Assembly: GCF_000186865.1 (NCBI RefSeq) | Contig: NW_008705565.1 | Coordinates: 1,697,686 to 1,761,685, forward strand | Length of the DNA: 64,000 nt | Origin: Aureococcus anophagefferens | Taxonomy: Eukaryota; Sar; Pelagophyceae; Pelagomonadales; Pelagomonadaceae | Direction: 5' to 3' | Shown here: piece by piece, positions 3,521 to 62,409 of the stretch | Numbering within the stretch: the stretch's first letter is position 1 | Layout of the letters: each line of letters begins with the position of its first letter | Program-made: the position numbers and the translations under genes | Notes under the pieces: model-generated | What the model was told of the DNA's origin: nothing | What the model saw: only the letters and a program-made list of their open reading frames with translations | Database searches by the model: none

Positions 3521-4928
3521 GTCGAACGCGGCCATGCTCACGCGCGCGCTCCACGCCAACGCGCTCGCCCTGTCGCGGGCGCTGCGCTTCCCCGCGCCGG
3601 AGAAGGCCGACAGCCTCGAGTCCGCCGCGGCGGCCGTGACGGCCGCGCACCGCGAGGAGCTGCGGAGCCCCGCGAACAAGCAGCCCCTCGCGTCGCCGAG
3701 CGCCGCCAAGGCGAAGCGCCCCGCGGCGGACCCGGCCTGGACCGGCGGGCCCCGGCCGCCCCCCGGGTCCTACCTCACGGACCCGGGCCCGCCGCGGTCG
3801 GGCGCGCCGCGCGCGTCGTTCGCGGCCATCCAGGCGTCCATGCTCGCGCCGCCGCCGCCGCCGCCGCCGCCGCCCGCCCAGTGGCACTCTACCGTCTGGG
3901 ACGCCCTCAACCAGAAGCTGTCCAAGGCCGACGACGACCCGCTCGCGCGCCGCGAGGTCGTGTCGTCGACGCGGCTGCGGGCCGCCGCGCGGTCCGCGAC
4001 GCCGCCGCCGCCGGGCGCGACGCCGCTCTACATCTCCTACGCGTCGCGCGGCGCCGCGACGGAGCAGCAGCGCCGCGAGTTCGACAAGGCCGCGCGCGGA
4101 GCAGGGCAGCAAAAGAGAGCGAAATTCCCAACTTCAAAGGCTCCGATCTCGGCCGTTTCCCACTCGTTTCGGCTGATTTTTGGACGAGCGATCATCTCTC
4201 GGAGCGCTCTCGAAGCGTAGATGCTTTTTCGGGAAACACTCACGTTGAAGCGACGTTGAATCTCTCTTTTCCTGCCCAGGCGCGTCGCGACGCGCGAGGC
4301 CGTCGAGAAGAACCTCCTCGGCTTCTCGCGCGCGACGGCGCGCGCGATCGACGCGATCCCGCGGCCGCGGCCGCGCGCGGCCGCGCCGGCCCTCGACCGC
4401 GTCGGCGAGGAGTCCGACGACGATTTGGTGCCGGACGTCAAGGTCGTCGAGCCGAGCGAGCATTCGGCGTCCCCCCTGCCCCCGCGCCTGCCCCCGCACC
4501 GCCTCGAGGCCGCGCGCCTCGAAACACGCATTTCGAGAGATTTCGGCGATGACGAAACATCTTCGCACCTCGTAGGCTCGCCGTCGTCCGCGTCCGCGGC
4601 GCCCGCGCTGCCGCCGCCGCCGCCGGACATGGAGTCCATCGCCGCGGCCGCGGCCGCGGCCGCGGACGACAGCCACCCGGGCCTCGACCTGCCCCTGCTC
4701 ACCTTCTCCTGCATCGTCGGCATCAAGCTGAGCCAGGCGACCTACTACCTCCGCAGCCACCACATGGTCGCGGATCTGCTGGCGCGCATGGCGGAGCAGT
4801 CCCGCGCGGACGTGGCCGCGCGCGCGGTCGCGGCCCAGATCCTCCTGGCCCAGGAGCAGGAACGGGACGCCGCGTCGCGGACGCCGTCCCGGGCGCCGAG
4901 CCCGCCGTTGGCGGGTGGGGGGGAGTAA
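3521..4928 (+). CDS. Probable 3' exons of the trehalose synthase-like gene (or a separate unknown protein)
   Basis: Exons 3521-4093 and 4280-4928 are joined across an introner (4094-4279). A further candidate 60-nt GC-AG intron at 4516-4575 has a length divisible by three and no stop, so it may or may not be spliced. The protein is Ala/Pro-rich with a poly-Pro run (nt ~3850-3880). An ordered patch contains WDALNQKLSKADDD, and a C-terminal segment (nt ~4675-4850) has a hydrophobic helix followed by an amphipathic helix. I recognise no family. There is no intergenic space or independent promoter before it and its frame follows directly from the upstream exon, so I favour one fused gene. If it is separate, the first good Met is at 3531. 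Confidence 0.55.
4094..4279 (+). mobile_element. Introner element, copy 1 (spliced, GC-AG)
   Basis: Element of 186 nt acting as an intron. The ends are inverted repeats: AGGGCAGCAAAAGAGAG at the left and CTCTCTTTTCCTGCCC at the right. The body contains TTCGGCTGATTTTTGGACGA, shared with the other three copies. Flanking repeats are degenerate (GCGCGGAG at 4094, GCGCGTCG at 4280). A GC donor at 4094 and AG at 4278-4279 keep the reading frame (KAA-RVATRE). Confidence 0.85.
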
Positions 4929-5444
4929 TCTCTTTTCAGCGGTCGAGCGACCCCGGCCAAAATCGACTCTCTCTCTCTCTCACGCAATCCTGGCCATCCC
5001 GGCATCGAGGTGATGGTCCCGCGTCTTTGATTGATTTCAGGCTGTCAGGGGGTTCGGGGGGTTCGTTCGTGTGGGCGTTCGATCGGTGGCACCCCTGGGT
5101 TCAAGCCCTGAAAAAAAAACGGGGCAATGTGGCCTAGAACTCCCGAAGAATCGACGATTTCGCCGGCGAAGAACTGCGCTTCGTCAGTTCGTCAGATGCG
5201 GCGAGCCCCGCGGTCCGTCGTGTTCCGGTGGCGTTCGTGGGGCTAGCGGGGGGCGCCCGGGCACCGGCGAGCCCATCGGCCCTCTCCGAGAACGTCGTTT
5301 ATCAATTCTTTCGTTCGATCGCGCGTCGACCCGACGACGCCCGCTCCCCGAACGCCCCTACCCCGCAGGTCGAGCGAAGTCGACAACCGCAAGGCCTTCA
5401 ACGCCAAAAAGCAAGCGACCGTCCCGACGGTCGCCCCCTTCGTC
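4929..5444. other. Intergenic, promoter side of subtilisin 1
   Basis: There is no convincing gene. The stretch contains a CT microsatellite at about 4967-4981 and an A9 run near 5110. The last ~60 nt before the subtilisin start are purine/A-rich, as expected of a 5' leader. Confidence 0.5.
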
Positions 5445-7333
5445 ATGAAGGTTTCACTCATCTCCCTCCTTCTCACAACCGTCTCCGCGGCCCGCCGCCG
5501 GCGTCTCGCGGAGCAGCTGGACCTGCCCAAGCTGGCCGAAGACGCGGACGAAGGCCTGCTCGGCTCCCGCGTGCTCTTCCAGCTCGAGTCGTCCGACGAC
5601 GCGGCGGGCGTGGCCGCGAAGGTCTCGTCCATCCTCGACTGCGGCTCGTCCCCCGAGCGCATCTTCCGGTCCGCCGGCAAGTTCGAGGCCGCCCACAAGC
5701 AGGCCGGCCTGGACCGCTGGTACCAGGTCGAGTGCGGCGGCTCGTCCGACGACAAGACCGCGGCCTCCAAGGAGATGTTCGCGCACCTCATGCAGTACCT
5801 CGACTCCGACGACCACGACGGCGTCTTCTTCATCGAGCCGGAGATGGACGAGTCGCTCCTTTGGACGCCCGACGACCCGAAGCTCAACACGCAGGACCAC
5901 TACGATGCCATCCGCCTCTTCGAGGCCTGGGACGTCACCAAGGGCTCCGCCGACGTCGTCGTCCAGGTCCTCGACACGGGCATCGACATGTCGCACCCCG
6001 ACCTCAAGATGAACATCTGGCGCAACGAGGGCGAGATCTGCGGCAACGGCGTCGACGACGACAACAACGGCTACGTCGACGACTGCCACGGCTACAACCA
6101 CGCCGACGACACGGGCACGGACCTCGTGAGCAGCAACTGGCACGGCAGCCACTGCGGCGGCACGATCGCGGCCGACTCGAACAACGGCGTCGGCGTCGCC
6201 GGCGTCGCCGGCGGCGACGGGTCCGAGAACTCGGGCGTCAAGCTCATGATCTCGGTCGGCTTCGGGGACACGGCGGTCAAGGGCTTCGGCGAGGCGCTCA
6301 CGTACGGCGCGGACATGGGCGCGCAGATTTCGTCGAACTCCTGGGGTGACACGCGGCGTCCGCGACGATTTTCGAGAGATTTTGACCGCGAAAACGATCA
6401 AATATTGTTACCGACGTGCTTGGTAGGCTACACGGGCCCGGGCTACATCGCGCAGTCCATCAAGGACGCCATCGACTACTACAACGCGAAGAACGGCATC
6501 GTCGTCTTCGCCGCGGGCAACCAGAACTCGGCCTCGGACTACTACCCGGCGTTCGCGATCCCGCGTCCGACGCCTTTTCGCGAGAGCGCGCGACGAGCGC
6601 GCGTCGACGTAGGTACTACGACGGCACCATCGCCGTCGCGGCGGTCACGGACGCGGGCGTCCGCGCGTCGTTCTCCAACTACGGCGACTGGATCGAGATC
6701 TCCGCGCCGGGCGTCAGCGTCTACTCGACGCAGCTCGGCACGGCCTACGGCTACGCATCGGGCACGTCCATGGCCTGCCCGCACGTCGCGGGCGTGCTCG
6801 CGCTCGGCCTCAGCGTCGCGCCGGACGCGACCAAGGACGAGCTCCTCGCGTGCATGTACGAGACGGCGAAGGACGTCGACGGCAGCAACGGCGCCTACGC
6901 GGGCAAGCTCGGCGCGGGCCTCGTCGACGCGGAGGCCTTCGTCGCGTGCGTCGGCGAGGGCGCCGACCCCCGGCCGACGCCGCGGCCGACGCCGCCGCCG
7001 TCCGTCGAGCCCGACGAGCCGCCGCCGAAGCCCGAGGACCTCAAGGTCAAGATGCACCGCAAGGCCGGCGACCAGGCCCTCGCGAGCTGGTCGCACGCGG
7101 CGACGGCGTCGGGCGACGGCCGCAAGTTCGTCGTCGAGTACCAGACGAACCACGACGAGACCTGGACCCGCGTGGACAAGGGCCGCTCCTACGTCAGCGA
7201 GGTCGACGGCCGCTTCTACCAGCCGATCCACGCGCCGTGCCTCACCAAGGGCCGCGTCCGCGTGACGGCCGTCGATCACGGCGACTCCGCCCCGGCCTAC
7301 TCCGACATCTTCAAGATGAAGTGCCGCGAGTAG
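5445..7333 (+). CDS. Secreted subtilisin-like serine protease 1 (peptidase S8)
   Basis: Exons 5445-6345, 6427-6550 and 6613-7333 give 581 residues. A signal peptide (MKVSLISLLLTTVSAA) is followed by a ~120-residue propeptide-like region. The catalytic domain has Asp in [13 protein letters not shown] (~176), His in [10 protein letters not shown] (~232), the oxyanion Asn in FAAGNQNS (~331) and Ser in SGTSMACPH (~391). A calcium-site-like stretch ([15 protein letters not shown]) lies between Asp and His. A short PT-rich linker leads to a ~100-residue C-terminal domain with a fibronectin III-like pattern, ending YSDIFKMKCRE. Both introns are GT-AG (81 and 62 nt). The second is missing from the paralogue downstream at 9100. 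It is probably secreted or lysosomal. Assignment to S8 is firm; the substrate is unknown. Confidence 0.93.
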
Positions 7334-7530
7334 CGCCCGCGTTCCCCCTCCCCCCCAAGATACGAACGCCTGCGGAAGTAAGACGCCCCCAAGCAACTCG
7401 AGAGGTCTGTCGTGCGGACTTGTGCCTAGAGCTATAGCGCCAGAGCGCCGGCCGGAGTCCGGCCGGAGCGCCCGCCTGGCCAAGTCGTGAGACCTCGCAC
7501 CGATCTCCGAGAGCGCGCGCGTCGTCGCGC
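7334..7530. other. Intergenic; contains a short GC palindrome
   Basis: This is spacer between subtilisin 1 and the orphan gene. It includes a GGCCGGA/TCCGGCC palindrome at about 7451-7465. I see no gene in it. Confidence 0.4.
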
Positions 7531-8400
7531 ATGCAGGCACCCCCGCCCACGCTTTGGCTGCGTCTCCGCCTCCGGTCCGCGAGTGACCAAGCCACGGGCT
7601 CAATGAGCGCCTCGCCAGTGCCCGACGCTCCCATGTCGACGCGACAATTGGTCGACCGGGTGATCGCTTCCCGGCAAAGCCGGTCTCGCGTCACCCCGGC
7701 GCAACACGCGCGGCTGCCGTTCAGAGTCAAGGGCACTCTAATGGCCGAGCAGCACGACGACGATCTAGAGCTACGCGTGATGAACATTCACGGAAATCTT
7801 CAGCCGGCCAAGTCGTTCCGCGAGTTCATGCGAATGGTCTTTGTCGAGCTCGTAGCTTTGAATGATGTGCTTTTCGCGGATCTTAAACTGAGGTACCCCG
7901 ACTACGACGAGTGGGACGAGGACCATAAGTCGGACGCCGAGTGGGAGCTGCTTCGGGGATCGCCGGTGCGTTTGGTGCTCGAGCCGCTCGGCGTCCCCTG
8001 GCCTTTGATGCGTTTGCTCGACGACACTGCCGCCGATTCGCACCTTCTCCGTAGCCTCGTCGCGCGCCAGCGCTTCGAGCGCATGTGGCTCCGCCTGGTC
8101 ATCTCGAAGACCGCGATCGCGCACCTCGCGTTTCTCTTCGACGACTTCTGCCCAAAGGAAGACCCGTTTCCGCGCCTGAAGGACCTCCAGACCGCGATGG
8201 GCAAGCTCGCTCATCTCTTCGGCGAATTGAATTGCAGCAACACCATTGATGAGTTCACTGTGGGTGTCTCGCCCTCGGGCGCACGCGGCACGCTGGCGAC
8301 CTGCCGCGACGGCGTCCGCTGGATCACCGGACGCGACCAGCGCGAGATCGACGAGTATCTCCCCTCGGACGGCGACTCGGACGGCGAGATGGACTATTAG
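7531..8400 (+). CDS. Orphan acidic protein of lower GC content
   Basis: An uninterrupted frame of 289 residues. In-frame Mets at 7531, 7603, 7633 and 7741 are all possible starts; I kept the longest. Codon use is visibly less GC-biased than in the neighbouring proteases. The protein is helical, with a conserved-looking middle (FREFMRMVFVELVALNDVLF, DYDEWDED) and an acidic tail (SDGDSDGEMDY). I recognise no domain. Its position inside the subtilisin tandem array and its deviant composition suggest an insertion or a member of a lineage-specific family. No function is proposed. Confidence 0.6.
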   Translation: MQAPPPTLWLRLRLRSASDQATGSMSASPVPDAPMSTRQLVDRVIASRQSRSRVTPAQHARLPFRVKGTLMAEQHDDDLELRVMNIHGNLQPAKSFREFMRMVFVELVALNDVLFADLKLRYPDYDEWDEDHKSDAEWELLRGSPVRLVLEPLGVPWPLMRLLDDTAADSHLLRSLVARQRFERMWLRLVISKTAIAHLAFLFDDFCPKEDPFPRLKDLQTAMGKLAHLFGELNCSNTIDEFTVGVSPSGARGTLATCRDGVRWITGRDQREIDEYLPSDGDSDGEMDY

Positions 8401-8499
8401 AGTTGGGGCCCGGGCAACGCGCGCACGGCTAAAGCCTGCTAGAACCTGCGAGCGCTAGCGTCACACGAGAGCCGGCTGGGCGCGCGGTGCCGGGCCCGA

Positions 8500-8595
8500 G
8501 GACCGCGCGTGCCCGCGCGTCTATTGACGACGGCGCGATCGCGTCCGAGCCCAAGGAGAGCGACATCAAGAAGATGAAGTGCTGGGACTGGTAAG
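8500..8595 (+). pseudogene. Relic of a third subtilisin C-terminal domain
   Basis: The frame ending at TAA 8593-8595 reads ...ESDIKKMKCWDW-stop. This closely matches the ends of the two intact proteases (YSDIFKMKCRE and [12 protein letters not shown]). Only the last ~25-30 residues are recognisable and there is no catalytic domain nearby. It is probably the remnant of a third tandem copy. Confidence 0.6.
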
Positions 8596-8639
8596 CCGCC
8601 CTCCCCGCGCAAGCAAGCAGCCGGAGTCGACCCGCCAGA

Positions 8640-8663
8640 CCCGTCCGTCTCCAGACGGACGGG
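8640..8663. repeat. Perfect 11-bp hairpin
   Basis: CCCGTCCGTCT and AGACGGACGGG are separated by 2 nt. The hairpin lies 45 nt after the stop of the subtilisin relic. Role unknown; it could be a 3'-UTR structure left over from that gene. Confidence 0.5.
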
Positions 8664-9099
8664 CAAGGCGGCACCCACGACCCACGCCCGGCCCCCGAAC
8701 CACGCCGAGGGGCCGCGACACTGTAAAGATAGCACAGACTAAGTGGTCGGGCGCAGGCCCCCGCCTTGCAAACGTCCAGACCGGTGCGCGCCACTGCATG
8801 TTGAGGTAGCTTGAACTCGATTTTCCGGGAACCGGTTCCTCATTCCTCAAAAGTCAAAGCAGAGCCTCCAAGTGAGTCGGACGCGCCGCGCGCGCGCGCG
8901 GCCCTCCGCGCTTCTCCGCGCTTCTCCGCCTCCCCCTGCCTTCCTCCCGCCCTTCTCCGGCCCGCTGTGCCACGACGCGGGCTCATTCGTCGAAATTTAG
9001 GCTCTACCCACAAGGCGATCTCGACGCCACCCAGCAAGCGTTCGCGCACCACCTCTCTCACCCGTACACACACACACTCAAGCAACACCTCTCAACAAG

Positions 9100-11824
9100 A
9101 TGGCCTCCAAACTTCAGTCCGCTCTCCTCGCGCTCGCCCTGCTCTCCGGCGACGCCAAGACCCTCAGCGGCAACCGCCGCCTCGCCGACCGCCTCGACGT
9201 CGCCAAGATCGCCGAGGACGCCGAGGAGGGCAAGCTCTCGAGCCGCGTGCTCTTCAAGATCGACGACGACCACCGCGACGACGCGGCGGCCGTCGCCGAC
9301 AAGGTCGCCACGATCCTCGAGTGCGACGCCGCCCCCACCCGCGTCTTCCGCGACGCGGGCAAGTTCGAGCGCGGCCACAAGGCCGCGGGCCTCGACCTGC
9401 ACTACCAAGTCGAGTGCGGCAAGGGCGCGGCCGCGTCCAAGGAGACCTTCGAGGCGCTCATGAAGTTCCTCGACAGCGACGACCAGCAGGGCGTCGCGCT
9501 CGTCGAGCCCGAGTACAACGAGGAGCTCCTCTGGACGCCCAACGACCCCTCGCTCTCAACTCAGGATCACTACCCGGCCATCATGCTGGAACAAGCGTGG
9601 GACTATTCCACGGGCTCGGCCGACGTCGTCGTCCAGGTCCTCGACACGGGCATCGACATGTCCCACCCGGACCTCCAGATGAACATCTGGAAGAACCCCG
9701 GCGAGATCTGCGGCAACGGCATCGACGACGACAACAACGGCTACGTCGACGACTGCCACGGCTACAACCACGCCGACGACACGGGCACGGACCTGCTCGG
9801 CAACCACTGGCACGGCTCCCACTGCGGCGGCACGATCGCCGCCGACTCGAACAACGGCGTCGGCGTCGCGGGCGTCGCGGGTGGCGACGGCTCCGCCAAC
9901 TCCGGCGCCAAGCTCATGATCTCGGTCGGCTTCGGCAAGACGGCCACCGGCGGCTTCGCCGAGGCCCTCCTCTACGGCGCGGACATGGGCGCGCAGATCT
10001 CGTCGAACTCGTGGGGTGCCACGCGGCGTCCGTGACGTTATTTTCGAGAGACTTTGACCGGGTGATCAATCACCGACGCATTCAATCCTAGGTTACACTT
10101 CCCCCGGCTACGTCGCTCAGTCGATTCTCGACGCCATCGACTACTACAACGCCGTGAACGGCATCGTCGTCTTCGCCGCGGGCAACAGCAACAGCGAAAG
10201 CGACTACTACCCCGGTTTCTACTCCGGCACGGTCGCCGTCTCCGCGGTCGAGGACAACGGCGTCCGCGCGTCGTTCTCCAACTACGGCGACTGGATCGAG
10301 ATCTCCGCGCCCGGCGTGAGCGTGTACTCAACGATGATGGGCACGTCCTACGGCTACGCGTCCGGCACGTCCATGGCCTGCCCCCACATCGCCGGCGTCC
10401 TCGCGCTCGGCAAGTCTTTCAGCCCCACCATCGCGAACGACGTGCTCCTCGACTGCCTCTACACGACGGCCATGGACATCGATCCCGACAACGGCGCCTA
10501 CGCGGGCAAGCTCGGCGCGGGCATGGTCGACGCCGCCCACTTCATGGAGTGCGTCCACGAGTCGGCGGACGAGCCGCCCGTGGAGACGCGCAAGCCGACG
10601 GCCAAGCCGACGCCGGGCAACGACAAGCCCTGCTGCGTCGACCGGTCGGGCGAGTGCGAGCACATGTGGTGGAACGGCCATCTCCAGACGCAGGACAAGT
10701 GCGAGGCCTTCCACGACGGGCTCTGCGAGTGGATCTGCGACGACGACGAGCCGCGCAAGCCGACGGCCAAGCCGACCCCCATCGACGACGAGCCGCGCAA
10801 GCCGACGGCCAAGCCGACCCCCATCGACGACGAGCCGCGCAAGCCGACGGCCAAGCCGACGCCGGGCAACGAGAAGCCCTGCTGCGTCGACCCCACGGGC
10901 GAGTGCCAGCACATGTGGTGGAACGGCCAGCTGCAGACGCAGGACAAGTGCGAGGCCTTCCACGACGGGCTCTGCGACTGGATCTGCGACGACGACGAGC
11001 CGCGCAAGCCGACGGCCAAGCCGACGCCCATCGACGACGAGCCGCGCAAGCCGACGGCCAAGCCGACCCCCATCGACGACGAGCCGCGCAAGCCGACGGC
11101 CAAGCCGACGCCGGGCAACGAGAAGCCCTGCTGCGTCGACCCCTCGGGCGAGTGCCAGCACCAGTGGTTCGACGGCTTCCTCCAGACGCAGGACCGCTGC
11201 GAGGCCTACCACGGCGGCGACCTGTGCACGTGGATCTGCGACGACGACGAGTGGCAGCACGACGACGACGACGACGACGACTCGGCGTACTCCTATTCGT
11301 ACTCGTACGATTTCGACGACGACTGGCTCGAGCCGACCGCGGCGCCGAGCCCGATGCCGACCAAGAAGACGCCCAAGCCCACGTCGCGCCCCACGGAGAA
11401 GCCCACGCCCAAGCCCACGTCGCGCCCCACGGAGAAGCCCACGCCCAAGCCCACGTCGCGCCCCACGCTGAAGCCGACGCCGAACCCGACGCCGAAGCCG
11501 ACGCTCAAGCCGTTCCCGCCCGTCAAGGACGTGAAGCTGACGATGCACCGCAAGGTCGGCAAGTTCGCCGTCGCGTCCTGGACCTACGAGGACGGCGACG
11601 CGTCGCAGTTCGTCGTCGAGTTCCAGACGCAGGCCGACGAGACGTGGAAGCGCGTCGACGAGGCGCGCGTCTACTTCGACGAGAAGGACGAGCGCTTCTA
11701 CCAGATCATCATGGCCCCGTGCAACACCAAGGCCAAGGTCCGCGTCAAGACGTCCTCCGACCCGGACGGCGCCACGCCGTGGGTCTACTCCAACGTCCGC
11801 AAGATGAAGTGCTGGAACCGCTAA
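9100..11824 (+). CDS. Secreted subtilisin-like serine protease 2 with Cys-rich tandem modules
   Basis: Exons 9100-10015 and 10092-11824 give 882 residues. After the signal peptide and propeptide comes an S8 catalytic domain very similar to the paralogue at 5445: Asp ~182 in [13 protein letters not shown], His ~238 in HGSHCGGT, Asn in FAAGNSNS, Ser ~397 in SGTSMACPH. Three near-identical Cys-rich modules follow (nt ~10617-10740, 10860-10998, 11107-11250), each with CCVD..GEC, a W-rich NGxLQTQD stretch and CxWICDDDE. They are separated by KPTAKPTP repeats. Then come a Tyr/Ser/Asp patch, [12 protein letters not shown] repeats and the fibronectin-like C-terminal domain ending KMKCWNR. The single 76-nt GT-AG intron occupies the same position as intron 1 of the paralogue. 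The modules may bind substrate or cell wall (inference). Confidence 0.93.
10617..11250 (+). repeat. Three tandem Cys-rich modules plus KPTAKPTP repeats
   Basis: Three copies of a ~43-codon Cys module alternate with short KPTAKPTP units inside the protease gene. DNA identity between copies is high, so the duplication or homogenisation looks recent. The third module has diverged ([15 protein letters not shown]). Confidence 0.85.
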
Positions 11825-11942
11825 GCGCGGCAGCAAGCACCAAGCAAGAGCGCCCGCCCGCCCGTCCGCCCCAGCGCGGCCCGAGGCCAGAGGCCCATTT
11901 TCGCGCGAACGCGCTCGTAAAATGGAGAACAGCACCCAAACC

Positions 11943-15294: not shown

Positions 15295-15351
15295 GTGTGT
15301 GTGTCGATAAAAAGGCAGTTAATCCGCCCCGCGAACGTGACGCGCGCCTTG

Positions 15352-16125: not shown

Positions 16126-16184
16126 GACACAGCCCGGGCGGCACGTTTGGCCTGAGAGAATTAAACGTAAACCAAGATTCTCTG

Positions 16185-17266: not shown

Positions 17267-17309
<43 letters not shown>

Positions 17310-18822: not shown

Positions 18823-20165
18823 CTCGTCGTGCGCTGCGTGCTCCGGAAGCGGAACGTCGAGAGCCTGTCGCTGATGAAGTCGCTCACGAAGCAGTTCCGC
18901 GCGCCCGTGGGCGCGGTCGCCGCCGCGGGCGTCAAGGACAAGCGCGCGCTGACCTGGCAGTTCGTCACCGTTAAGATCGGCCGGTCGCGGAACGCGATCG
19001 CGGCGCTGCGCTGGGCGCTCACGACCGAGACGCCCGCGAAGATCGGCGCCGACGCGGCGCTCTACCCCGTCGACGTCGTCGAGAAGATGCTCCAGCCCGG
19101 CGACCTGCGGGGCAACCGCTTCGCGGTCGTCGTCCGCGACGTCGCCGGCGACGCGGCGCCGCTCGTCGACGCGTTCCGCCGGAACCCCGTGTTCCTCAAC
19201 GCGTTCGGCACGCAGCGCGTCGGCAAGGAGGGCGGCGGCGACGTCCCTCCTCCGACGTGGCAAATCGGCCGGGCACTGCTCGCGCGGCGCCACGGCGAGG
19301 CGTTCCTGCTCGCGTGCGCGTCCTGCCCAGGGCAGCAAAAGAGAGCGAAATTCCCAACTTCAAAGGCTCCTTTCTCGGCCGTTTTCCACTCGTTTCGGCT
19401 GATTTTTGGACGAGCGGTCATCTCTCGGAACGGTCTCGAAGCATGGATGCTTTTTCCGGAACGCGCGCGCGCGGAACACTCACGTTGAAGCGAACTTGAA
19501 TCACCCTTTTCCTGCCCAGGTCGTGCCTCGGCGACTTCGCGACGAACGCGCCGCTCGCCGCGGTCCGCGCGGCCGTCGCGGCCGGCGCCTTCGACCGCGG
19601 CGCCGCGAAGAAGCTCACCGCCGCGCTCCCGAGAAACGCGCCCGCGCGCGACGCGGCCGTGGCCTACGCGCGGACGGCGTCGTGCGAGGCCGCGGCGGCC
19701 GCGCCGCCGCACCGTGCGCGGACGCTCTGGCTCCACGCGTACCAGTCCTACGTCTTCAACGTCGCCGCGGCCGCGCGGCTCGACGCCGGGCCGCTCGACG
19801 CGCCGCTCCCCGGCGACGAATTCGACGGCGGCGAGCTCGCGCTGCCCCTCGTCGGGTCGCGGACGGTCCTCGGCGCGGGCGCCGCGGCGCGCGCCGCGGC
19901 CGCGGTCCTCGCGCGCGACGGCGTCGCCGAGGACGACTTCAAGCGCGAGCGCCTCCGGGGCGGCGCGCGGCGCCTCGCCGTCCGCGCCGAGGGCCTCGAC
20001 GTCGCCCTCGATGAGGGCGCGAAGACGCTGACGGCGACCTTCCAGCTCCCGGCGGGCGCCTACGCGACGACGATGCTCGGCGAGCTCTTCGGCGCACTGG
20101 ACGTCGTCCACGAGAACCGGGGCAAGCACGAGGCGCCCGAGGTCGCCGTAAGTCGCGACGCGTAG
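17731..20165 (+). CDS. PUS7: TruD/PUS7-family tRNA pseudouridine synthase
   Basis: Exons 17731-19319 and 19520-20165 give 744 residues, split by an introner. The start ATG at 17731 precedes the family motif DFVVDEV (~33). The catalytic Asp lies in AGVKDKRALTWQ (~402), followed by NRFAVVVRDV and NAFGTQRVG. Exon 2 supplies the C-terminal TruD fold (LWLHAYQSYVFN). It isomerises uridine to pseudouridine in RNA. Between the first motif and the core lies an acidic insert with a 24-nt tandem repeat (18142-18213). Exon joining gives ACA-SCLGD with no extra residues. It converges with primase, the stops being 34 nt apart. Confidence 0.92.
18142..18213 (+). repeat. 24-bp tandem repeat, three units
   Basis: Units begin GAGGCGCCAACGGAGGAAGT and encode EAPTEEVG/K. 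They lie in the disordered insert of the pseudouridine synthase gene. Confidence 0.8.
19320..19519 (+). mobile_element. Introner element, copy 2 (spliced, GT-AG)
   Basis: 200 nt, very similar to copy 1 along its length. The ends are AGGGCAGCAAAAGAGAG and CTTTTCCTGCCCAG. The flanking repeat is GTCCTGCC at 19320 versus GTCGTGCC at 19520 (7 of 8). The donor GT is the first two bases of the left repeat and the acceptor AG is the element's end. Confidence 0.9.
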
Positions 20166-20199: not shown

Positions 20200-21510
20200 C
20201 TAGAAGTCGCCGACCATGGCGGCCTGCTGCTCCTTCTCGTCGCGCTGGCCCTTGTGGAGGGACTTGAGGAGCGGGTCGATGAAGCTCTTCTCGAAGAAGC
20301 GGACGGCGTGCTTGAGGTCCGTCTTCTCGAGGTCGGGCACGTCCTCGGTCGACGCGTCGATCTGCTTCGCGAGGTCCTTGAGCGTGACGACGGCCGTCGG
20401 GTCGAAGGCCGCGCACTGCTTCGCGTCGAAGGGCACGCAGACGCGGCCCGTCTTCGGGTGCGCGGCGAAGGGCGACTTGAGGAGGTGGTTGCGGTGCTTG
20501 GACACGTTCTCGTCGAGGCGCGGGTAGCAGTGCGTGAAGACGACCTCGTACTTCCAGAGCTCGTCGACCTGCGCGCGCTTCTGCTTCTTCGCGGAGGACC
20601 CGCGGTCCGGCGACGCGCAGAGGCCCTTGAGCGCGTCCCACTTCTGCGCGGGCGTGCTGGCGTCGCCGGCGCGCGCCCAGTGCTTGGCGATCTGGTCCGC
20701 GATGTCCTCGGGGAGCGTCGCGAGGAGCTTGGACCAGTGCTCGGGGCTCGCGAGGAGCTTCTGGCCGTCCTCGGGGATGACGTGCTTGATGAAGAGCGGC
20801 TCGAGGAGCTTGTACGCGCGCTCGAGCGACGGGTGGAGCGGCGCCTGGAGGTCCGTCTTCTTCGCCGAGTTCTCGTTGCCGCCGACGACGGAGAAGTACT
20901 TGATGATGGCCAGCCGCGCCTCGTTCGTGAGCTTGCGCGACTCCGCGTCGCCGACCCAGCAGTGGACGCCGCGCCGGCCGCTGTAGACCCACATGATGTG
21001 CTCGAAGCCAAAGTCCTCGCGCAGCGACGACTCGCAGACGCGGCAGGCGCACGTCATGTACTGCCAGCACTTGCGGCAGACCGTCGCGCCCTGGCAGCAC
21101 GTCCGCACGTCGTCGTAGTCGCTGAGGTCGATGTCGAAGACGAGCTCGCGCTCCTCGGGCCGGAAGTTCTTGATGCTCAGGTGGTCCTTGGGCGACGCGT
21201 TGAAGACGGCGCCGATGTCGATCTTGTGCGGCTGGCGCTTCGTCATCAGCTCCTTCATCGCCTTGGCGTCGCCGAAGCACTGGTAGCGGATGTAGACGTC
21301 GTCCGCGAGCGTCAGCGACAGCTCGCGCTTCGCCAGCGTCGACCCCGTGCCCACGGGCGTCGACGCGTCGCCGTGGGGCTGGTACGCGAGCCACTTGCAC
21401 ATCTGCTCGTAGGGGAAGAGCCGCGCGTAGTACATGCGCAGCAGGTCCGCGTCGAACTTGGGACCCGCGTCCTGCTGCTCCTCGACCTCCTCCACGTCCA
21501 TGGCGGTCAT
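20200..21510 (-). CDS. PRIM1: DNA primase small (catalytic) subunit
   Basis: 436 residues from the ATG at 21510 (MTAMDVEEVEEQ); human PRIM1 is about 420. The catalytic acidic pair is in ELVFDIDLSDYDD (~123), and the zinc-binding Cys cluster CCQGATVCRKCWQYMTCAC follows. SGRRGVHCWVGD (~176) is the family signature, and YPRLDENVSKHRNHLLKSPF lies in the C-terminal third. It synthesises RNA primers in the polymerase alpha-primase complex. Single exon. The frame is open ~37 codons further upstream, but that part is basic and non-conserved. Confidence 0.95.
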   Translation of the reverse strand: MTAMDVEEVEEQQDAGPKFDADLLRMYYARLFPYEQMCKWLAYQPHGDASTPVGTGSTLAKRELSLTLADDVYIRYQCFGDAKAMKELMTKRQPHKIDIGAVFNASPKDHLSIKNFRPEERELVFDIDLSDYDDVRTCCQGATVCRKCWQYMTCACRVCESSLREDFGFEHIMWVYSGRRGVHCWVGDAESRKLTNEARLAIIKYFSVVGGNENSAKKTDLQAPLHPSLERAYKLLEPLFIKHVIPEDGQKLLASPEHWSKLLATLPEDIADQIAKHWARAGDASTPAQKWDALKGLCASPDRGSSAKKQKRAQVDELWKYEVVFTHCYPRLDENVSKHRNHLLKSPFAAHPKTGRVCVPFDAKQCAAFDPTAVVTLKDLAKQIDASTEDVPDLEKTDLKHAVRFFEKSFIDPLLKSLHKGQRDEKEQQAAMVGDF

Positions 21511-21832
21511 CTTCAAGACGAGTGCGCTCGCAAGTGCGCCGACGGTGCAAGGCGGCGAATGCAAGACGCGGCGAAGACGCGGCCGCGGGCGGAGCGCTCC
21601 CGGTGCTCTCAGATCGTTCAAAATCGATCGTCAACAGACCGTCAACATCGGGGAAAGTTGACGTTGAAGTTTCTTAGAGGCCCTCTCGACCTTCGTTTCT
21701 CTACGAGCGACGCCTCATCGCGCCTTCTTCGATGAATGCAGGGGACGGGCTTACGCTCTCGGGACGCCGACGCCTTTGAAAAGGCGACCCGGTCGCCGCC
21801 CCCTCCGACTCGCGCCTCACGCCGCGACACCG
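21511..21832. other. Intergenic between primase and GPN2
   Basis: This is the promoter side of primase and the 3' side of GPN2. Around 21630-21680 several GTCAAC/GTTGAC words and an ACGTTGAAG stretch resemble the 3' part of the introners. It is too short to call a relic. Confidence 0.35.
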
Positions 21833-22921
21833 TTACGAGTACCAGGAGAACGCCCCGTCCTCCTCCCCGCCGCCGCTCGCCGCCGGCGCGCGCGGCGCGT
21901 GCGTGCGGTACGTGCGGTCCCGCGGCGGCGCGGCGCGCGCCGCCTCGTCCGCGTCCGCGAACGCGCGGACGCGGTCGTCGAGCTTCGCGTCGTCGGACTC
22001 CGGGTCCCAGGGCATGGGCCGCCCGCCCTTGTGCAGCAGGAAGAGGTCCGTCGCGTCCTCGACGAGCGCCGCGGGCGCGTGGACGCCCGCCGGGTGGCCG
22101 TTCGCCTTGTCGAGCATGCGGACCAAGCGCGCGACGGAGTCGCCGTCGGACACGTCCAGCGGCTGGTAGCACACGAGCCCGAAGTCGTCGACGAGCTCGC
22201 AGATGCGGCCCGTGAGCTTCTGGAGCCGCTCGTTGTAGCGCGCGGCGTCGCCCGCGGCCGCGTCGCCCGCGACGGGCTCCGGCGCGCGCGGCCGCACGCC
22301 GCAGAACGGCACGATGCGGTGCAGCTCGCGCGCGTCCTTGAAGAACTCGAGGTTCATGGCGAGCTCGTAGCGGTCCGCGAGGTCCACCTTGCTCAGCACG
22401 TTGATGTGGGGGAGCTCGAGGCGCAGCATCGCCGTCAGCGACAGGAGGCACGCCGCGACGTAGTGGCTCGGCACGCCGCAGTGCGCGACGTCGACGAGGT
22501 GCGCGGCGACGAGCCGCGCGTCGAAGGTGCGCTTCAGGTCGTCGAGGATGCGCCGCAGGCTCCCGTCGTGCGTGAAGAGCTCCGTCTGGCCCGGCAGGTC
22601 GAAGATGACGTAGGGGAAGCACTCGTCGACCGCCAGCTTCTCGACCTCGTCGCGGAGCCAGGTGCTCTGCTCCAGCTCCTTCATGCAGAAGAGGAGCGCG
22701 CCGTTCGCGCCCAGGCCCTGCTCGGCCATGGCGCGGTCCACGCTGCAGAAGTCGCGCACGTCGATGGCGAAGGTCGTCAGGCCCTCGCCCTCGCAGGCCG
22801 GGTCCAGGTTCACGAGCGCCACCGGCCGCTTCGACAGCGCGTGATAGCGGCAGAGGCCCGCGCACATCGTGCTCTTGCCCGCGCCCGGCGGGCCCACGAC
22901 GACGCAGCCAAAGAGGCTCAT
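21833..22921 (-). CDS. GPN2: GPN-loop GTPase 2
   Basis: 362 residues. The P-loop GPPGAGKST is at ~10-18, the DLPGQ switch motif at ~109-113, and SKVDL (guanine specificity) near 185. HLVD, LELPHINVLSKVDL and the C-terminal PLDVSDGDSV..DKANG assign it to GPN2 rather than GPN1 or GPN3. These GTPases assist assembly and nuclear import of RNA polymerase II. The signature Gly-Pro-Asn loop reads LGANGAL (71-73), with Ala in place of Pro. A disordered 40-residue tail is extra relative to animals. It is head-to-head with the next gene, with only ~50 nt between starts. Confidence 0.92.
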   Translation of the reverse strand: MSLFGCVVVGPPGAGKSTMCAGLCRYHALSKRPVALVNLDPACEGEGLTTFAIDVRDFCSVDRAMAEQGLGANGALLFCMKELEQSTWLRDEVEKLAVDECFPYVIFDLPGQTELFTHDGSLRRILDDLKRTFDARLVAAHLVDVAHCGVPSHYVAACLLSLTAMLRLELPHINVLSKVDLADRYELAMNLEFFKDARELHRIVPFCGVRPRAPEPVAGDAAAGDAARYNERLQKLTGRICELVDDFGLVCYQPLDVSDGDSVARLVRMLDKANGHPAGVHAPAALVEDATDLFLLHKGGRPMPWDPESDDAKLDDRVRAFADADEAARAAPPRDRTYRTHAPRAPAASGGGEEDGAFSWYS

Positions 22922-47455: not shown

Positions 47456-47464
47456 TCGTAAAAC

Positions 47465-51841: not shown

Positions 51842-52160
51842 CGAAGGGCAGCTGCGGCTGTTTCACCTCGGTCTCTAGCAAGCTTCAGAACCTCTGCGTA
51901 GCGCTGGGGCAGCCATCGTTGCGCACAACGACGGCATCATGAAGAGGAACGGCAAACAGCATCGCGGATCAATCGCGGCGGGAGCGTAGAGCTACAGCTC
52001 ATCGAGTCCTGTCGTCGCCAAGCGGAGTCTACTTCTATCGAGGCCACCGTCGCCGCCGCTGCAGCGCGTGCGTCGCTGTCGTCGGAACCGCAGCGAGTGC
52101 CGCGGACCCTACCAGGCGCCGTCGGAATCGCAGCAGCTCGGCAGCTCGCGGTCGACGGCC
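51842..52160. promoter_or_regulatory. Divergent promoter region, orphan / cold-shock genes
   Basis: 319 nt between divergent starts. It contains GTCGGAAC/CGCAGC-type repeats near 52080-52135. No defined element is recognised. Confidence 0.35.
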
Positions 52161-53177: not shown

Positions 53178-53224
53178 GGCGCGCGCGCGAGCGCGGGGTC
53201 TTGCGAAGTCTTAGAAGTTCGCTT

Positions 53225-53992: not shown

Positions 53993-54190
53993 TTGTCAAA
54001 AGGAGAGCTGCTCGGCCAGGTCGGGGAAAGATGTTAATCAAACCAAGTGGCGGTAGGCGCGTCGGTGTGGGTCATCGAATGCGCGAGAGCGGCTAAATCA
54101 AAGCGCTGTTGCGGGTAACGACAGGCGCGCCGACAAAGGGAAGCAGGCTAAAAATCAGTGGCAAAAATTTTAATAATCGCTCGTCGCAAA
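53993..54190. promoter_or_regulatory. Divergent promoter region, ankyrin / exchanger genes
   Basis: 198 nt, AT-richer than average (AAAAATTTTAATAA near 54163). No clear element is recognised. Confidence 0.35.
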
Positions 54191-55909: not shown

Positions 55910-55950
55910 GAGCGGCGGCGGGGACGGGCGGGTAAAATAGGCGCGCTCCT

Positions 55951-56957
55951 CTAACCAGAACTTACGCCGCCCCCCTCGAGAAGATGCAGCACCTCGACGC
56001 GCTTCCGCTTCCACTTGAGGTCCTCGTGGCCGACGTCGTACGCGGGCTCGAACGCCGCGCCCGGCAGTTTCGCGGAGAGCGCCGCCACGAACGCGTCGCG
56101 GCCCTCGCGGTCCGGCGACCCGCCGACGACGACGTCCATGCCGCGCGCCCGCGCCTCGACGACGCGGTCCGCGACGGCGAGGGCGAGAGGCGCGTCGTAG
56201 AGCACGTCCGCGGCCACGAGCCTGGCAGGAAAAGAGAGCGAAATTCCCAACTTTGGAGACTGATATCTCGGCCATTTTCCACTCGTTTCGGCTAATTTTT
56301 GGATGAGCGATCATCTCTCGGAGCGTTCTCGACGCGTGGATGCATTTTCCGGAACGGTCGCGCGCGGAAAACTCATGTTGAAGCGAACTTGAATCACTCT
56401 TTTCCTGCCCTGGCCACGAGCAGGTCGAAGCCCGCGGGCAGCGGCTCCGGTCCGCGGGCGTCGAAGGCCGCGACGTCGACGGCGAGCCGCTGCTCCGCGG
56501 CCGCGCGGCGCGTGAGGTCGAGGGCCCTCGGCGACACGTCGGTGGCGAGGACGCGGCGCGCGCCGCTCGCGGCGGCGACCAGCGCGGCGAAGCCGTTGCC
56601 GCAGCCGAGCTCGAGCACGTCTCGGCCGGCCGCGACGGCGCGGAGCCGCGCCGCGGCGGCGAGCGCGCCGGGCCAGAGCTTGGCGCCGTAGGGATTCTCC
56701 GCCGCCGTCGACGCGCGCCACCACCCCTGGTCCGCCACTTCGAGCACCCAGATGGAGCAATTGCCGTCCAGCGTCGTCGTCGCGCGCCGCAGCGCGAGCG
56801 GCGCTTCGGCGCTTTTTGTTGTGGGTGGTATTTTGGTGCGCTTGCGCGGCGCGCGCGCGAGAGGTGCTGCGAACGGCACCAAGAGCAGCAGCATGCATAT
56901 ATATATAGGCGCGGCCCAAATGTGCTGGACCATGCCGTCTCTCCTCCGACTTTCCAA
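55951..56957 (-). CDS. Class I SAM methyltransferase (METTL21-like), interrupted by introner
   Basis: Exon 1 runs 56957 to 56422 and exon 2 56221 to 55951, giving 268 residues; Mets at 56933 and 56894 are also in frame. A hydrophobic N-terminus (ICMLLLLVPFAAPLA) suggests targeting to the ER or plastid. The SAM-binding loop is VLELGCGNGFAAL, followed by VLATDVSPRALDL. Motif IV is FDLLVAADVLYD, complete only after intron removal, and fits lysine-methyltransferase relatives such as METTL21/eEF2KMT. Trp residues (IWVLEVADQGWW) precede the core. Substrate unknown. It converges with the exchanger gene 41 nt away. Confidence 0.82.
56222..56421 (-). mobile_element. Introner element, copy 3, antisense to host gene (GC-AG)
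   Basis: 200 nt. The shared core (TTCGGCTAATTTTTGGATGA) reads on the plus strand while the host gene is on the minus strand. Perfect direct repeats GGCCACGAGC on the plus strand (56212-56221 and 56412-56421) flank it. On the gene strand a GC donor at the first repeat and CCTGCCAG at the far end give exact repair of FDLLVAADV. Confidence 0.88.
56892..56906. repeat. AT dinucleotide run
   Basis: CATATATATATA lies near the 5' end of the methyltransferase. It could be a TATA-type promoter piece or simply encode IYI if the longer start is used. Confidence 0.4.
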
Positions 56958-57073
56958 GGGCGTGTCTCAGCATCAGGTTGATGGCAACGAAACATCGTAG
57001 GGCGCCGTCGACGTCGAGTCCTCCGCCGCGCCGGGGGGCTAGATCAGGCGCAATTAGGAAACAGACAAGCGAA

Positions 57074-59113: not shown

Positions 59114-59605
59114 GGTCGTGCTTTGTGCTGCGTGCTTGGTCACCTTGCGTTGGGCCGTCACAAGAAAGCTCTTCTAGCGGTTGTCCTGGGTTTTGGAGGC
59201 GGGCTGCCACCTATGGGCCACCAATCAGATTTGAGATAGTATTGGAGTAAGGTATGCACTACCCCTGCTCCTCCGACCCGTATTGGATACAAGAAGACAC
59301 GTGCGCGGGCTCGATCCGCTCACACGATTCTTCAAAGCAAAGCCACCCGCATTGCTTCGGCGTCCGTCGCACCGCGCGCGCGCGTCCCCACCCAATCTCC
59401 CACACCCGCAACCCTCCCCCCGCCCCTCCCCATGCAACCCTCGACCCGCCCACCAAATTTCCCCGCCGCTCGTCGCGTCCTCGACGCGCGCGGCGCATCG
59501 GATCTTTTCCCTTGAATATGCGCGCCTTCGATCGTTGCAACACTCACCCGCGCAATTCCCGCCGCAGACGCGCAATTCCCGCCGCAGACACTCACACTCA
59601 TCACC
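59114..59605. promoter_or_regulatory. Divergent promoter region, acyltransferase / antenna genes
   Basis: 492 nt. It includes a C-rich tract (59390-59440) and a 20-bp tandem repeat CGCGCAATTCCCGCCGCAGA at 59549-59588, which ends 17 nt before the antenna start codon. Confidence 0.5.
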
Positions 59606-60238
59606 ATGAAGCTCGCCCTCGCCCTCGCTCTCGTCGCCCCCGCCGCCGCCTTCCAGGCGCCGGCCACCCAGAAGGCGTCCGTCGTCGTCAAGGACTCCAT
59701 CGGCGTCGACCCCGGCCCGATCGAGCCCTCCGGCCTCTTCTGGGAGGACAAGGAGTCTCTCGCGCGCCGCCGCGCCGTCGAGATCAAGCACGGCCGCATC
59801 GCCATGACCGCGTTCATCGGCATGATGGTCCAGGAGCTCGGCATCACGTTCCCGGGCTCGATCAACCTCGACGGCTCGGTCCAGTTCTCGGACATCCTCA
59901 AGGACGGCATGGGCTTCGCCGCCCTCGGCAACATCCCGACCTTCGGCCTCGTGCAGATCGCCCTCTTCGGCGGCATCGCCGAGACGGTCGCCATGCCCGC
60001 GTCCCAGTACACGGGCGGCCCCCAGAACCTCCCCGGCGGCTACGACGGCTCCGCGGGCACGATCCCCGGCGGCTACCCCTTCACGGAGCAGATCACGGAC
60101 CCGGCCGCGCGCACGCGCGCGCTCACCTGCGAGCTCCAGAACGGCCGCGCCGCCATGATGGGCGTCACGGGCGCGATGATGCACTCCCAGCTCGACTCGT
60201 GCGACCACCACTTCTTCTACCCCATCACGCACAACTAG
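59606..60238 (+). CDS. Fucoxanthin chlorophyll a/c-type light-harvesting protein
   Basis: 210 residues from the ATG at 59606. A bipartite targeting sequence: signal peptide MKLALALALVAPAAA then FQAP, matching the heterokont ASAFAP-type plastid motif. Helix A has EIKHGRIAM and helix C has ELQNGRAAMMG, the chlorophyll-binding ExxxxR patterns. A middle helix (TFGLVQIALFGGIAETVA) lies between them. The length is normal for FCP antenna proteins. It sits in the thylakoid membrane and feeds photosystems. Codon use is strongly biased, as expected of high expression. Confidence 0.95.
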   Translation: MKLALALALVAPAAAFQAPATQKASVVVKDSIGVDPGPIEPSGLFWEDKESLARRRAVEIKHGRIAMTAFIGMMVQELGITFPGSINLDGSVQFSDILKDGMGFAALGNIPTFGLVQIALFGGIAETVAMPASQYTGGPQNLPGGYDGSAGTIPGGYPFTEQITDPAARTRALTCELQNGRAAMMGVTGAMMHSQLDSCDHHFFYPITHN

Positions 60239-60706
60239 GCGCGCACGCGCCCAAGCAAGCTCCACGGCGGAGGCGCCCCCTCGTCCTCGGACGTGGCCGG
60301 AAATAGCCCAGGCTAGTTGCGCGCCGCTAAATACCCTTCGTGCCAGCCTGGGCCTGAGCTCGCGCCGCGGCAGCCGCGAGCTCGCCTCGTCGGACACAGG
60401 ACGCCTCGCCGGGGGCGGCGCGACGAGCATCCGTGGAGCCGCCGCCGCGTCGCCGCGACGAGGCGCGAGAGGAGCCGCGGCGCGCGGCGCCGCGGCGCGC
60501 GGAGCTGCGGGGTGCGCGCGCCGCGGACCCCAGGCGGGGACCCCCCGGCTGATGAAGGTAAGATCATCCTAATCGAGGGAGCGGTAACGCAGGGCATAGA
60601 GCAAGCCGTCGGGCCCGGTCGGCAGCCCCGTTTCGCGCGAGGAGCCGGTCGGCACGGGGGGCGCGCTGGGCGCGCGCCGTCGAGCCACACACCGGCGTCG
60701 ACCGCG
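60239..60706. other. Intergenic GC-rich spacer
   Basis: 468 nt between the antenna and coiled-coil genes. GC-rich, partly repetitive (GCGGCGCGCGG at ~60480). The downstream frame stays open through it but is not protein-like. Confidence 0.4.
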
Positions 60707-62409
60707 ATGGACGCCGGCGGCCGGGACAGCGTGTTGACGCTGCCGCCCGAGGTCCTCAAACTCACGCACCAGCTCGAGCAGGAGAAGCTCGAGAGCCTGA
60801 CGCGGCGCTACGACGTGCTGCGCAAGGAGAACGAGCTCCTCAAGACGCGCCTCGAGAAGAGCGCGACGGCCGCGTGGAACCACCGCGGAAGAAACACAGC
60901 TCGCGAAACCCCGCTCCTTTCTTAGGCGAGAAGGACACGCACGAGTTCGTCGCGTACTTCCAGAAGGAGCTCGAGGGCAAGGACGTGCGCATCCACAGTT
61001 TGAACGAGCTCATGGCCCACCAGGACGCGGAGCGCCAGGCGGAGCACGACGCGCTCGTCCGGCGCCAGAGCGAGCAGGTCGCGGACCTCGAGACGAAGCT
61101 CCAGACGGCCGACACGACGTCGACGGCGAAGATCCAGATGCTCGAGGACGAGCTCGCCAAGGTCGACACGTTCCGCGAGATGAAGCTCGCCATGGACGCC
61201 AAGATCGAGGAGCAGGAGAAGGCGCTGAAGCTCGCCGAGGAGCGGCACCTCGCCGAGGCGACGGCGAACGAGCGCAAGTTCCTCGCGGAGAAGAGCAAGA
61301 TGCAGAAGGACCTGGAGAAGCGGACGTCCGACATCCGGCGCGCGGCGAAGCAGGAGATGCAGAACGGCCTCGACGCCGACACGCTCAAGGTCATCGGCGA
61401 GAACCGGCGCATGGCCGAGGAGCTGCGGTTCCAGCAGCAGATGACCGCGGAGCTCCAGAGCGAGAAGAACGCCGTCGACGAGGCCGTGCGCGTGCTCCGG
61501 CGCGACATGGAGCTCGCGCGCGAGAAGGAGGGCGAGTACGCGAAGCAGTCCCACGTGAAAAACCGCGAGGCGAAGAAGCGCGAGGAGAAGATCGCGGCGC
61601 TCGAGGAGCTCCTCCGCGACGCGGGCAAGAAGTTCCAGGGCGAGAAGGCCCACTTAAGACGCTCGCTCCAGGCGTCCCTCGAGGAGCAGACCCTCGACGC
61701 CGCGGGCCTCCGGCAGATGCTCCGCCTGAAGAACCGCGAGCTCTCGAAGCTCCGGCGCCTCGCGGAGATGGTCCTCGACTGTGTGGAAACCAACCACTGG
61801 TTGGGTGGTCCTGACCAAACTTGAGAATTCTCTAGCTCGGTCACATCCAAGTCGATTCGGCTGATTTTTGGACGGATCGATCGCTCTCGTCGAGTTCTCG
61901 AAGCCAAGCCGAAGCGATTGCGTCGAAACTGTCGCGTAAGCGCACATTGAAGTCGGGTTGAAGATTTGGTTTCCACACAGGTCCTCGAGCAGCGCACGGA
62001 GGTCGAGCAGTTCTTCCTGGAGGCGCTCGAGGACGTCAAGGCGAACATCGTCAAGCAGCGCCAGGAGCGCTACCGCGCGGACATGGCCGAGTACCGCACG
62101 CAGATGCGCACCGCGACGCTCGGCGACGGCACGGCCAAGTTCCCGAAGATCCGCGCGCTCCAGGCGGGCAAGGACGTCGACGGCATGGGCCCGCCGGCGC
62201 CGGGCACCATGCCCCACAACTTGTCGGCGAAGGTCCAGCTCAAGGACCTCACCCTGGAGGACCGGGAGCACGTCCTCCGGCTCCTCTTCGCGAAGATCAA
62301 CGCGGTCCACGGCAACGTCTCGAGCCTCCCGCCCCACGACCTGGAGAACAACGAGCGCACCTTCCTGACCAACTCCGCGCCCACGGGCGGCGGCGACGGG
62401 GGGATGTAA
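60707..62409 (+). CDS. BBOF1/CCDC176-like ciliary coiled-coil protein
   Basis: Exons 60707-60860, 60926-61770 and 61981-62409 give 475 residues. Intron 1 (65 nt) uses a GC donor; intron 2 is a 210-nt introner. The protein is nearly all coiled coil. The start (LTHQLEQEKLESLTRRYDVL) and the EKDTHEFVAYFQKELEGKD segment, plus VLEQRTEVEQFFLEALEDVK after the introner, fit the DUF4515 basal-body-orientation-factor family. That family is linked to motile cilia, so a flagellate stage is suggested (inference). The C-terminus is a Gly-rich tail ending GGGDGGM. Confidence 0.8.
61771..61980 (+). mobile_element. Introner element, copy 4, different terminal repeats (GT-AG)
   Basis: 210 nt. Terminal inverted repeats are TGTGGAAACCAA and TTGGTTTCCACA, unlike copies 1-3. 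The core still has ATTCGGCTGATTTTTGGACG and TCTCGAAGCC. The direct repeat GTCCTCGA at 61771 and 61981 is perfect. The donor GT is at the start of the first repeat. Confidence 0.9.

What the first reader, a model, noticed from the sequence alone, without database searches (positions are those of the whole stretch)
4094..61980. Introner family: four introns built from one inverted-repeat element
Introns at 4094-4279, 19320-19519, 56222-56421 and 61771-61980 share a core (TTCGGCTGATTTTTGGACG, ATCTCTCGG, TCTCGAAGC) although their host genes are unrelated. Each has terminal inverted repeats and 8-10 bp flanking direct repeats, two perfect and two degenerate. The donor dinucleotide is the first two bases of the left repeat and the acceptor AG is the element's end, so splicing restores the pre-insertion codons. 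DNA-transposon-like introners have been described in Micromonas and Aureococcus; here the mechanism can be read directly, copy by copy.
Basis: partly seen in the sequence, partly recalled or inferred. Interest (0 to 1): 0.9.

Follow-up and report, generated by a model that had tools for sequence, protein, structure and literature searches.

The report
Transposon-made introns in brown-tide alga
Four introns in this stretch of an alga's genome are copies of short jumping DNA elements that become removable introns when they land in genes, a process already described in this species; the detail worth following is that the two ends of each copy change together, letter by letter.

Summary
All four segments look like introns made by short inverted-repeat elements flanked by target duplications. 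The genome is Aureococcus anophagefferens, a species in which such introners are already published (PMC7789003, passages), so the headline is known. Two corrections: there are two element families, not one (A: 4094, 19320, 56222; B: 61771), with related interiors but different ends; and the 56222 copy is an intron on the minus strand.

The exact 19-base core occurs 2,184 times genome-wide, reversed control 0. Of 95 sampled copies with clear ends, 94 have GY at the start of the target copy and AG at the element end; donors are 53 GC and 41 GT. Donors show no U1-like excess at +3 to +6.

Possibly new: mirrored arm positions covary (r2 0.40-0.58) while neighbours on one arm mostly do not. Genome-wide, 221 A copies have mismatched ends at position 9, against 683 expected if ends were independent. 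Two tests give no overall support for RNA-level selection, one subgroup apart, so I favour matching at transposition. No autonomous partner was found; that search was weak. No RNA data were available.

The parts
4094..4279 (+). Introner, family A, core in gene direction. Target copy 4094-4101, element 4102-4279, second target copy 4280-4287 (6/8 match). GC donor, CAG acceptor, phase 2. Ends mixed at arm position 9 (C left, G right).
19320..19519 (+). Introner, family A, core in gene direction, inside a TruD/PUS7-like gene. Target copy 19320-19327, element 19328-19519, second copy 19520-19527 (7/8). GT donor, CAG acceptor, phase 2. Ends mixed at arm position 9.
56222..56421 (-). Introner, family A, CTGGCAGG subfamily, core against gene direction, inside a methyltransferase-domain gene. 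Repeats GGCCACGAGC at 56212-56221 and 56412-56421 (10/10). GC donor and CAG acceptor on the minus strand, phase 2.
61771..61980 (+). Introner, family B, core in gene direction, inside a coiled-coil protein gene without a Pfam match. Target copy 61771-61778, element 61779-61980, second copy 61981-61988 (8/8). GT donor, CAG acceptor, phase 0.

Best explanation
These are introners: short (about 190-205 bp) non-autonomous cut-and-paste DNA elements of Aureococcus anophagefferens, in two related families, A and B. Inferred: a transposase acting in trans inserts the element and duplicates 8 bp of target. Read from the sequence: where the target copy begins with GT or GC on the coding strand and the element ends in CAG on that strand, removing the left target copy plus the element restores the original codons. 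B mostly has an acceptor-like end on both sides and can serve either strand; A has one acceptor end and its core lies in either direction relative to the gene. Shown: within a copy the two arms match site by site at variable positions, while most neighbouring sites on one arm and the interior are nearly unlinked to them. Inferred: this matching arises when elements move or are copied (a need for matched ends, or one arm copied from the other through fold-back DNA) rather than from selection on splicing.
For: 2,184 exact cores, reversed control 0. TSD 8/8 in 78 of 111 copies and 6/8 or better in 102. GY...AG at the predicted place in 94 of 95 copies with clear ends; all 94 would be disruptive if retained. 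RPC1 and a kinesin align without a gap through the spliced junction. Arms match far beyond shuffles: A 634 of 689 cells against mean 590.7, maximum 612; B 420 of 462 against 361.7, maximum 383 (5,000 shuffles each). Mirrored r2: A 0.57-0.58, other A pairs 0.00-0.01; B 0.40-0.58, most other pairs 0.13 or less. Callers blind to complementarity agree for A and, after tightening, for B. Genome-wide A position 9: C/C 561, G/G 584, mixed 221 against 683 expected.
Against: No RNA-seq, no empty-site comparison and no autonomous element. Open spliced frames alone are weak evidence in 71% GC sequence. The TruD match spans the 19320 junction but has gaps near it; 4094 and 61771 have no homolog here to check the junction. 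One of 95 copies (L036) offers no GY...AG. Seven-position U1 similarity of donors is slightly above background (2.15 against 1.88, P 0.009), though not at +3 to +6. One subgroup (B sense) has few rare donor-arm variants (1 of 325), which would fit RNA-level constraint.
Confidence: 0.88

Rival explanations
1. The arms covary because the intron RNA must fold: the arm stem brings the bare GY donor next to the CAG acceptor and supplies information that U1 pairing lacks, as the secondary structure of euglenid nonconventional introns is thought to do.
For: Donors at +3 to +6 are no more U1-like than random exonic GY. The stem is in the minimum-energy fold of 81 of 92 introns, though arms alone would cause that. 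B-sense donor arms have few rare variants, 1 of 325 against 96 of 4,013 in the interior.
Against: G.U is not favoured over A.C on the coding strand: 39 against 47, or 33 against 32 without A position 15. Donor arms overall are not poorer in rare variants than interiors: A 13 of 649 against 126 of 7,583, B 15 of 529 against 163 of 6,754 (sums); the B-antisense arm is richer (14 of 204).
Confidence: 0.15
2. Arm matching is only descent: each subfamily has its own arms and copies inherit them.
For: Matched arm haplotypes recur in several copies; L6 and L7 in B change together.
Against: In A, sites two bases apart on one arm are unlinked (r2 0.01) while sites about 175 bp apart at mirrored places are linked (0.57-0.58). 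Arm sites have low mean r2 with interior sites, 0.02-0.13. On a weakly supported interior tree, position 9 changes at least 12 times among matched copies.
Confidence: 0.1
3. The introns spread as RNA, by reverse splicing and reverse transcription, as proposed for fungal introners.
For: They are near-identical introns in thousands of places.
Against: Direct repeats differ from locus to locus and arms are inverted; the first eight intron bases are target sequence, not part of the repeat; cores lie in both directions relative to genes.
Confidence: 0.02
4. The segments are inserted repeats that are not spliced, in broken genes or non-coding DNA.
For: No transcript evidence was available.
Against: 94 of 95 copies have GY...AG at the exact element boundary and all 94 would disrupt the frame; hosts include RPC1, a kinesin and TruD/PUS7.
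Confidence: 0.03

Closest known systems
Introner elements of Aureococcus anophagefferens (Huff, Zilberman and Roy 2016, doi 10.1038/nature20110; not held, content recalled; cited in PMC7789003, passages)
   Same: Species, length class, direct repeats, terminal inverted repeats, one splice site carried and the other taken from the duplicated target.
   Different: I could not compare sequences with the published families. The site-by-site covariation of the arms is not in the passages I saw; whether it is in that paper is unknown.
Aureococcus sp. introner of Gozashti et al. 2022, Fig. 2F (PMC9860276, passages, sections 8 and 12)
   Same: Same genus, 8-bp target duplication.
   Different: That family carries both splice sites and adds 12 bp to the transcript; the copies here take the donor from the target and add nothing.
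Introners of Amoebophrya (PMC7789003, passages)
   Same: Direct and inverted repeats, possible stem joining the exon borders.
   Different: Mostly non-canonical splice motifs, repeats of 3-5 nt and no family-specific inverted repeats reported.
Euglenid nonconventional introns (PMC6221363 and PMC4770533, search listing only)
   Same: No U1-complementary donor, secondary structure bringing ends together.
   Different: Those lack conserved borders; these have GY...AG, and RNA-level selection on the stem is not supported overall.

Membership tests
Introner (MITE-like, Aureococcus kind) | Near-identical introns in many unrelated genes | tested here: met
   2,184 exact cores; unrelated hosts
Introner (MITE-like, Aureococcus kind) | Target site duplication | tested here: met
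   8/8 in 78 of 111, 7/8 in 15, 6/8 in 9
Introner (MITE-like, Aureococcus kind) | Terminal inverted repeats | tested here: met
   reversed control 0 of 17
Introner (MITE-like, Aureococcus kind) | One splice site carried, the other co-opted from the target; codons restored | tested here: met
   94 of 95 copies; junctions of RPC1 and kinesin
Introner (MITE-like, Aureococcus kind) | Splicing shown in RNA | not testable with these tools
   no RNA data held
Introner (MITE-like, Aureococcus kind) | Insertion between nucleosomes | not tested
   no nucleosome data used
hAT superfamily MITE | 8-bp target duplication | tested here: met
   that this is typical of hAT is recalled
hAT superfamily MITE | CAGGG-like terminus (recalled consensus) | tested here: inconclusive
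   family A one end CAGGG; family B CTGTG
hAT superfamily MITE | Autonomous hAT transposase in the genome | tested here: inconclusive
   PF05699: no match, but no control genome matched either
Euglenid-type nonconventional intron | Non-canonical borders | tested here: not met
   GY...AG in 94 of 95

The most novel reading that the evidence does not exclude
Introner arms are corrected against each other base pair by base pair: at some step the element exists as fold-back (hairpin or cruciform) DNA, and either mismatched stems are repaired from the other arm or only self-complementary copies move. The arms then behave like an RNA helix in a covariation matrix although no clear RNA-level constraint is seen, and ends and interiors reassort among thousands of copies. 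The same element set may explain the published 'enigma' of GC-AG introns in this alga, because each donor is simply the GY that the target held.
Probability: 0.35. Interest if true: 0.65.

Novelty: already known. Interest (0 to 1): 0.4.

Why it matters
Introners are among the most direct evidence for how introns arise in bulk. This window agrees with the published mechanism in the same alga and adds two measurable points. First, donors carry no U1-like excess at +3 to +6 and GC donors outnumber GT, 53 to 41, in exons where GC outnumbers GT 3.61 to 1. That offers a simple reason for the 39.6% GC-AG introns reported for this species and called an enigma (PMC3033335, passages). Second, the arms of each element covary site by site, which constrains how the element moves and can be tested on the whole genome.

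Tried and rejected
Autonomous partner: hAT (PF05699) and KDZ (PF18758) gave no match, but the control genomes gave none either, so absence is not shown. U1 (RF00003) likewise is uninformative; PMC3033335 reports a U1 with consensus 5' end in this species. A scan of 262 kb for ends without a core gave nine weak matches: one belongs to a short hybrid element, one to a B copy split by a nested insertion (L035), and none marks a long element with these ends. The de novo scan found no further introner family, but it sees only 50-420 bp elements with an 8/8 repeat, strong arms and GC under 62%.

The first protein search used a poorly chosen frame and found nothing. The RPC1 fragment search only reaches proteins of similar length and did not identify the species; the primase search did.

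RNA-hairpin selection was tested in two ways and not supported overall, with one subgroup pointing the other way. A first complementarity-blind caller mis-registered some B right ends and gave mirrored r2 of 0.14-0.24; with tighter one-sided anchors it was 0.31-0.58.

Sampling: the first finder skipped some copies with an inexact core, among them the window's own 56222 copy; it found 107 copies. The corrected finder found 111; 16 were dropped (10 of unclear family, others with a repeat under 6/8 or the miscalled row L081), leaving 95 (A 53, B 42). rest on the first sample. Of the 100 exact-core places listed for contig C1, the 8 beyond 2.65 Mb were not fetched. L002-L008 came from a best-hit search with the 56222 copy and over-represent its subfamily.

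Full report
WHAT IS THERE. The four segments exist at the stated coordinates. Each is flanked by a direct repeat: 61771 8/8, 56222 10/10, 19320 7/8, 4094 6/8. Removing 4094-4279, 19320-19519 and 61771-61980 on the plus strand, and 56222-56421 on the minus strand, joins open frames in phases 2, 2, 0 and 2. On the minus strand the 56222 intron starts GCTCGTGGCC and ends CCTGCCAG. The hosts are a TruD/PUS7-like enzyme (19320) and a methyltransferase-domain protein (56222); the 4094 and 61771 proteins have no Pfam match, and the 61771 protein also has no match among solved structures.

NOT CHANCE. The exact core is present 1,076 + 1,108 times in the 49.05-Mb assembly and the reversed pattern 0 times. 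A scan of 262 kb (the window plus 20 stretches chosen around cores) for arms, an 8/8 repeat and splice signals gave 17 hits, against 0 in reversed sequence; 16 overlap a core and one is a 113-bp hybrid with an A-like and a B-like end.

WHICH ORGANISM. The window's DNA primase small subunit and the neighbouring GTP-binding protein match one A. anophagefferens record, JL722_2487. The neighbour is identical over 208/208 and 37/37 residues. The primase alignment is 351/428 with 46 gap positions; outside a few blocks it is nearly identical, and the odd blocks look like gene-model errors in that record, which fuses the two genes. The species belongs to the Pelagophyceae.

TWO FAMILIES. The corrected finder gives 111 copies in the window and fetched loci (core with at most 4 mismatches): 57 A, 44 B, 10 unclear. 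The consensus of A (192 bp) and B (203 bp), from the first sample, shares blocks around AACTTCA, CTCGG, the core, CTCTCG, TCTCGAAGC and CACRTTGAAG...GTTGAA, with diverged stretches between and different ends. In A the second base never matches between arms (0 of 53; 19 expected of 51): one end carries the CAG acceptor and the other does not. The A core lies with the gene in 27 and against it in 25 introns. B matches at that base in 31 of 42.

HOW IT BECOMES AN INTRON. Of 95 copies with clear ends, 94 offer GY at the first base of the target copy and AG at the element end; all 94 would shift the frame or add a stop if retained. Donors are 53 GC and 41 GT. In the first sample of 92 introns (51 GC, 41 GT) the flanking exons have GC:GT 3.61, so GT is over-represented about threefold. 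At +3 to +6 those donors are no more U1-like than exonic GY (1.13 against 1.08, P 0.33); over seven positions they are slightly more so (2.15 against 1.88, P 0.009). Conserved proteins support junctions: RPC1 aligns without any gap from 19 to 155, across the junction before ECVCAPYNADFDGDEMN, and a kinesin without a gap at DSL|GGN. The TruD match spans the 19320 junction but with gaps near it, and methyltransferase models span the 56222 junction. An open frame alone would be weak evidence here. PMC3033335 (passages) reports 39.6% GC-AG introns in this species, calls their origin an enigma, finds the highest information deficit of its 61 species, and a U1 with consensus 5' end. Target-derived donors would be a natural reason.

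ARMS COVARY. Within a copy the arms match more than shuffled pairs: A 634 of 689 cells against a mean of 590.7 (maximum 612), B 420 of 462 against 361.7 (maximum 383), 5,000 shuffles each. The coupling is site by site. In A, L9-R9 is 0.58 and L11-R11 0.57, while L9-L11, L9-R11, L11-R9 and R9-R11 are 0.00-0.01. In B, mirrored sites are 0.40-0.58 and other pairs at most 0.13, except among sites 6 and 7, which change together (0.48-1.00). Arm sites have mean r2 of 0.02-0.13 with interior sites, and interior linkage falls from 0.16 within 20 bp to 0.03-0.08 beyond 80 bp. Callers that treat each end alone give A 0.49 and 0.51 against 0.00-0.02; for B a first version gave only 0.14-0.24 because ends were mis-registered, a tighter one 0.31-0.58 against at most 0.24 apart from sites 6 and 7. 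Genome-wide, A position 9 is C/C in 561 places (control 13), G/G in 584 (0) and mixed in 221 (3); 683 mixed are expected if ends were independent. Both window copies 4094 and 19320 are mixed. In B, CCG/CCG occurs 100 times and CCG/TGG 33 times; TGG/TGG was not counted.

WHY THEY COVARY. RNA pairing would tolerate G.U over A.C on the coding strand; observed 39 against 47, or 33 against 32 without A position 15. Rare variants are not scarcer on the donor arm than in the interior overall (A 13/649 against 126/7,583; B 15/529 against 163/6,754, sums), but the groups differ: B sense 1/325, B antisense 14/204. So the data lean towards matching at the time of transposition or copying. Descent alone does not fit unlinked neighbours on one arm. 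Whether ends must match to be moved, or one arm is copied from the other, cannot be told here.

COMPARISON WITH WHAT IS KNOWN. PMC7789003 (passages) states that introners of A. anophagefferens display direct repeats and TIRs of constant length with canonical splicing motifs, citing Huff 2016. PMC9860276 (passages; sections 8 and 12) describes MITE-like algal introners and several ways of recruiting splice sites. PMC9481584 (passages) mentions an intron-length peak of about 210 bp in Pelagomonas like the introners of A. anophagefferens. Huff 2016 is not held and its content is recalled. Two searches for arm covariation or compensatory change in such elements returned one paper each, neither on introners (listings only). 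I cannot say that the covariation is unpublished.

VERDICT. The introners are real, ordinary for this species and already known. The site-by-site covariation of the arms is the part worth following up.

Noticed in passing
L023:6042-6154: A 113-bp element with an A-like end (CTGGGCAGGAAAC) and a B-like end (CTGTGCCGGAAAC), an 8/8 repeat and splice signals: a hybrid of the two families.
   Followed up: partly
L035:5073-5947: An 875-bp insert with 18-bp perfect inverted ends (GGGTCAACTTCCCAATAA) and a possible CACA duplication sits inside a B introner, splitting its core from its right end. Two stop-free frames overlapping it have no Pfam match.
   Followed up: partly
window 56222-56421; L002-L006: The CTGGCAGG subfamily lacks one G at the acceptor end and shows about 9-11 matching flank bases instead of 8: a longer duplication, or one extra base carried by the element.
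   Followed up: partly
window 20200-22921: The public record JL722_2487 fuses a GTP-binding protein and the DNA primase small subunit and drops coding blocks, probably an automated gene-model error.
   Followed up: no
window 5594-11824: Repeated gene segments about 3.6-3.7 kb apart (73-87% alike), with a partial subtilase match at the start of the 10334-11824 frame and a 249-bp unit present three times at 10583-11329.
   Followed up: no
L039 (C1:936880-937620): A run of N lies inside one B introner copy.
   Followed up: no
P0067: A record named Bacillus cereus is 69% identical to this alga's RNA polymerase III RPC1 stretch; it looks like a contaminated record.
   Followed up: no
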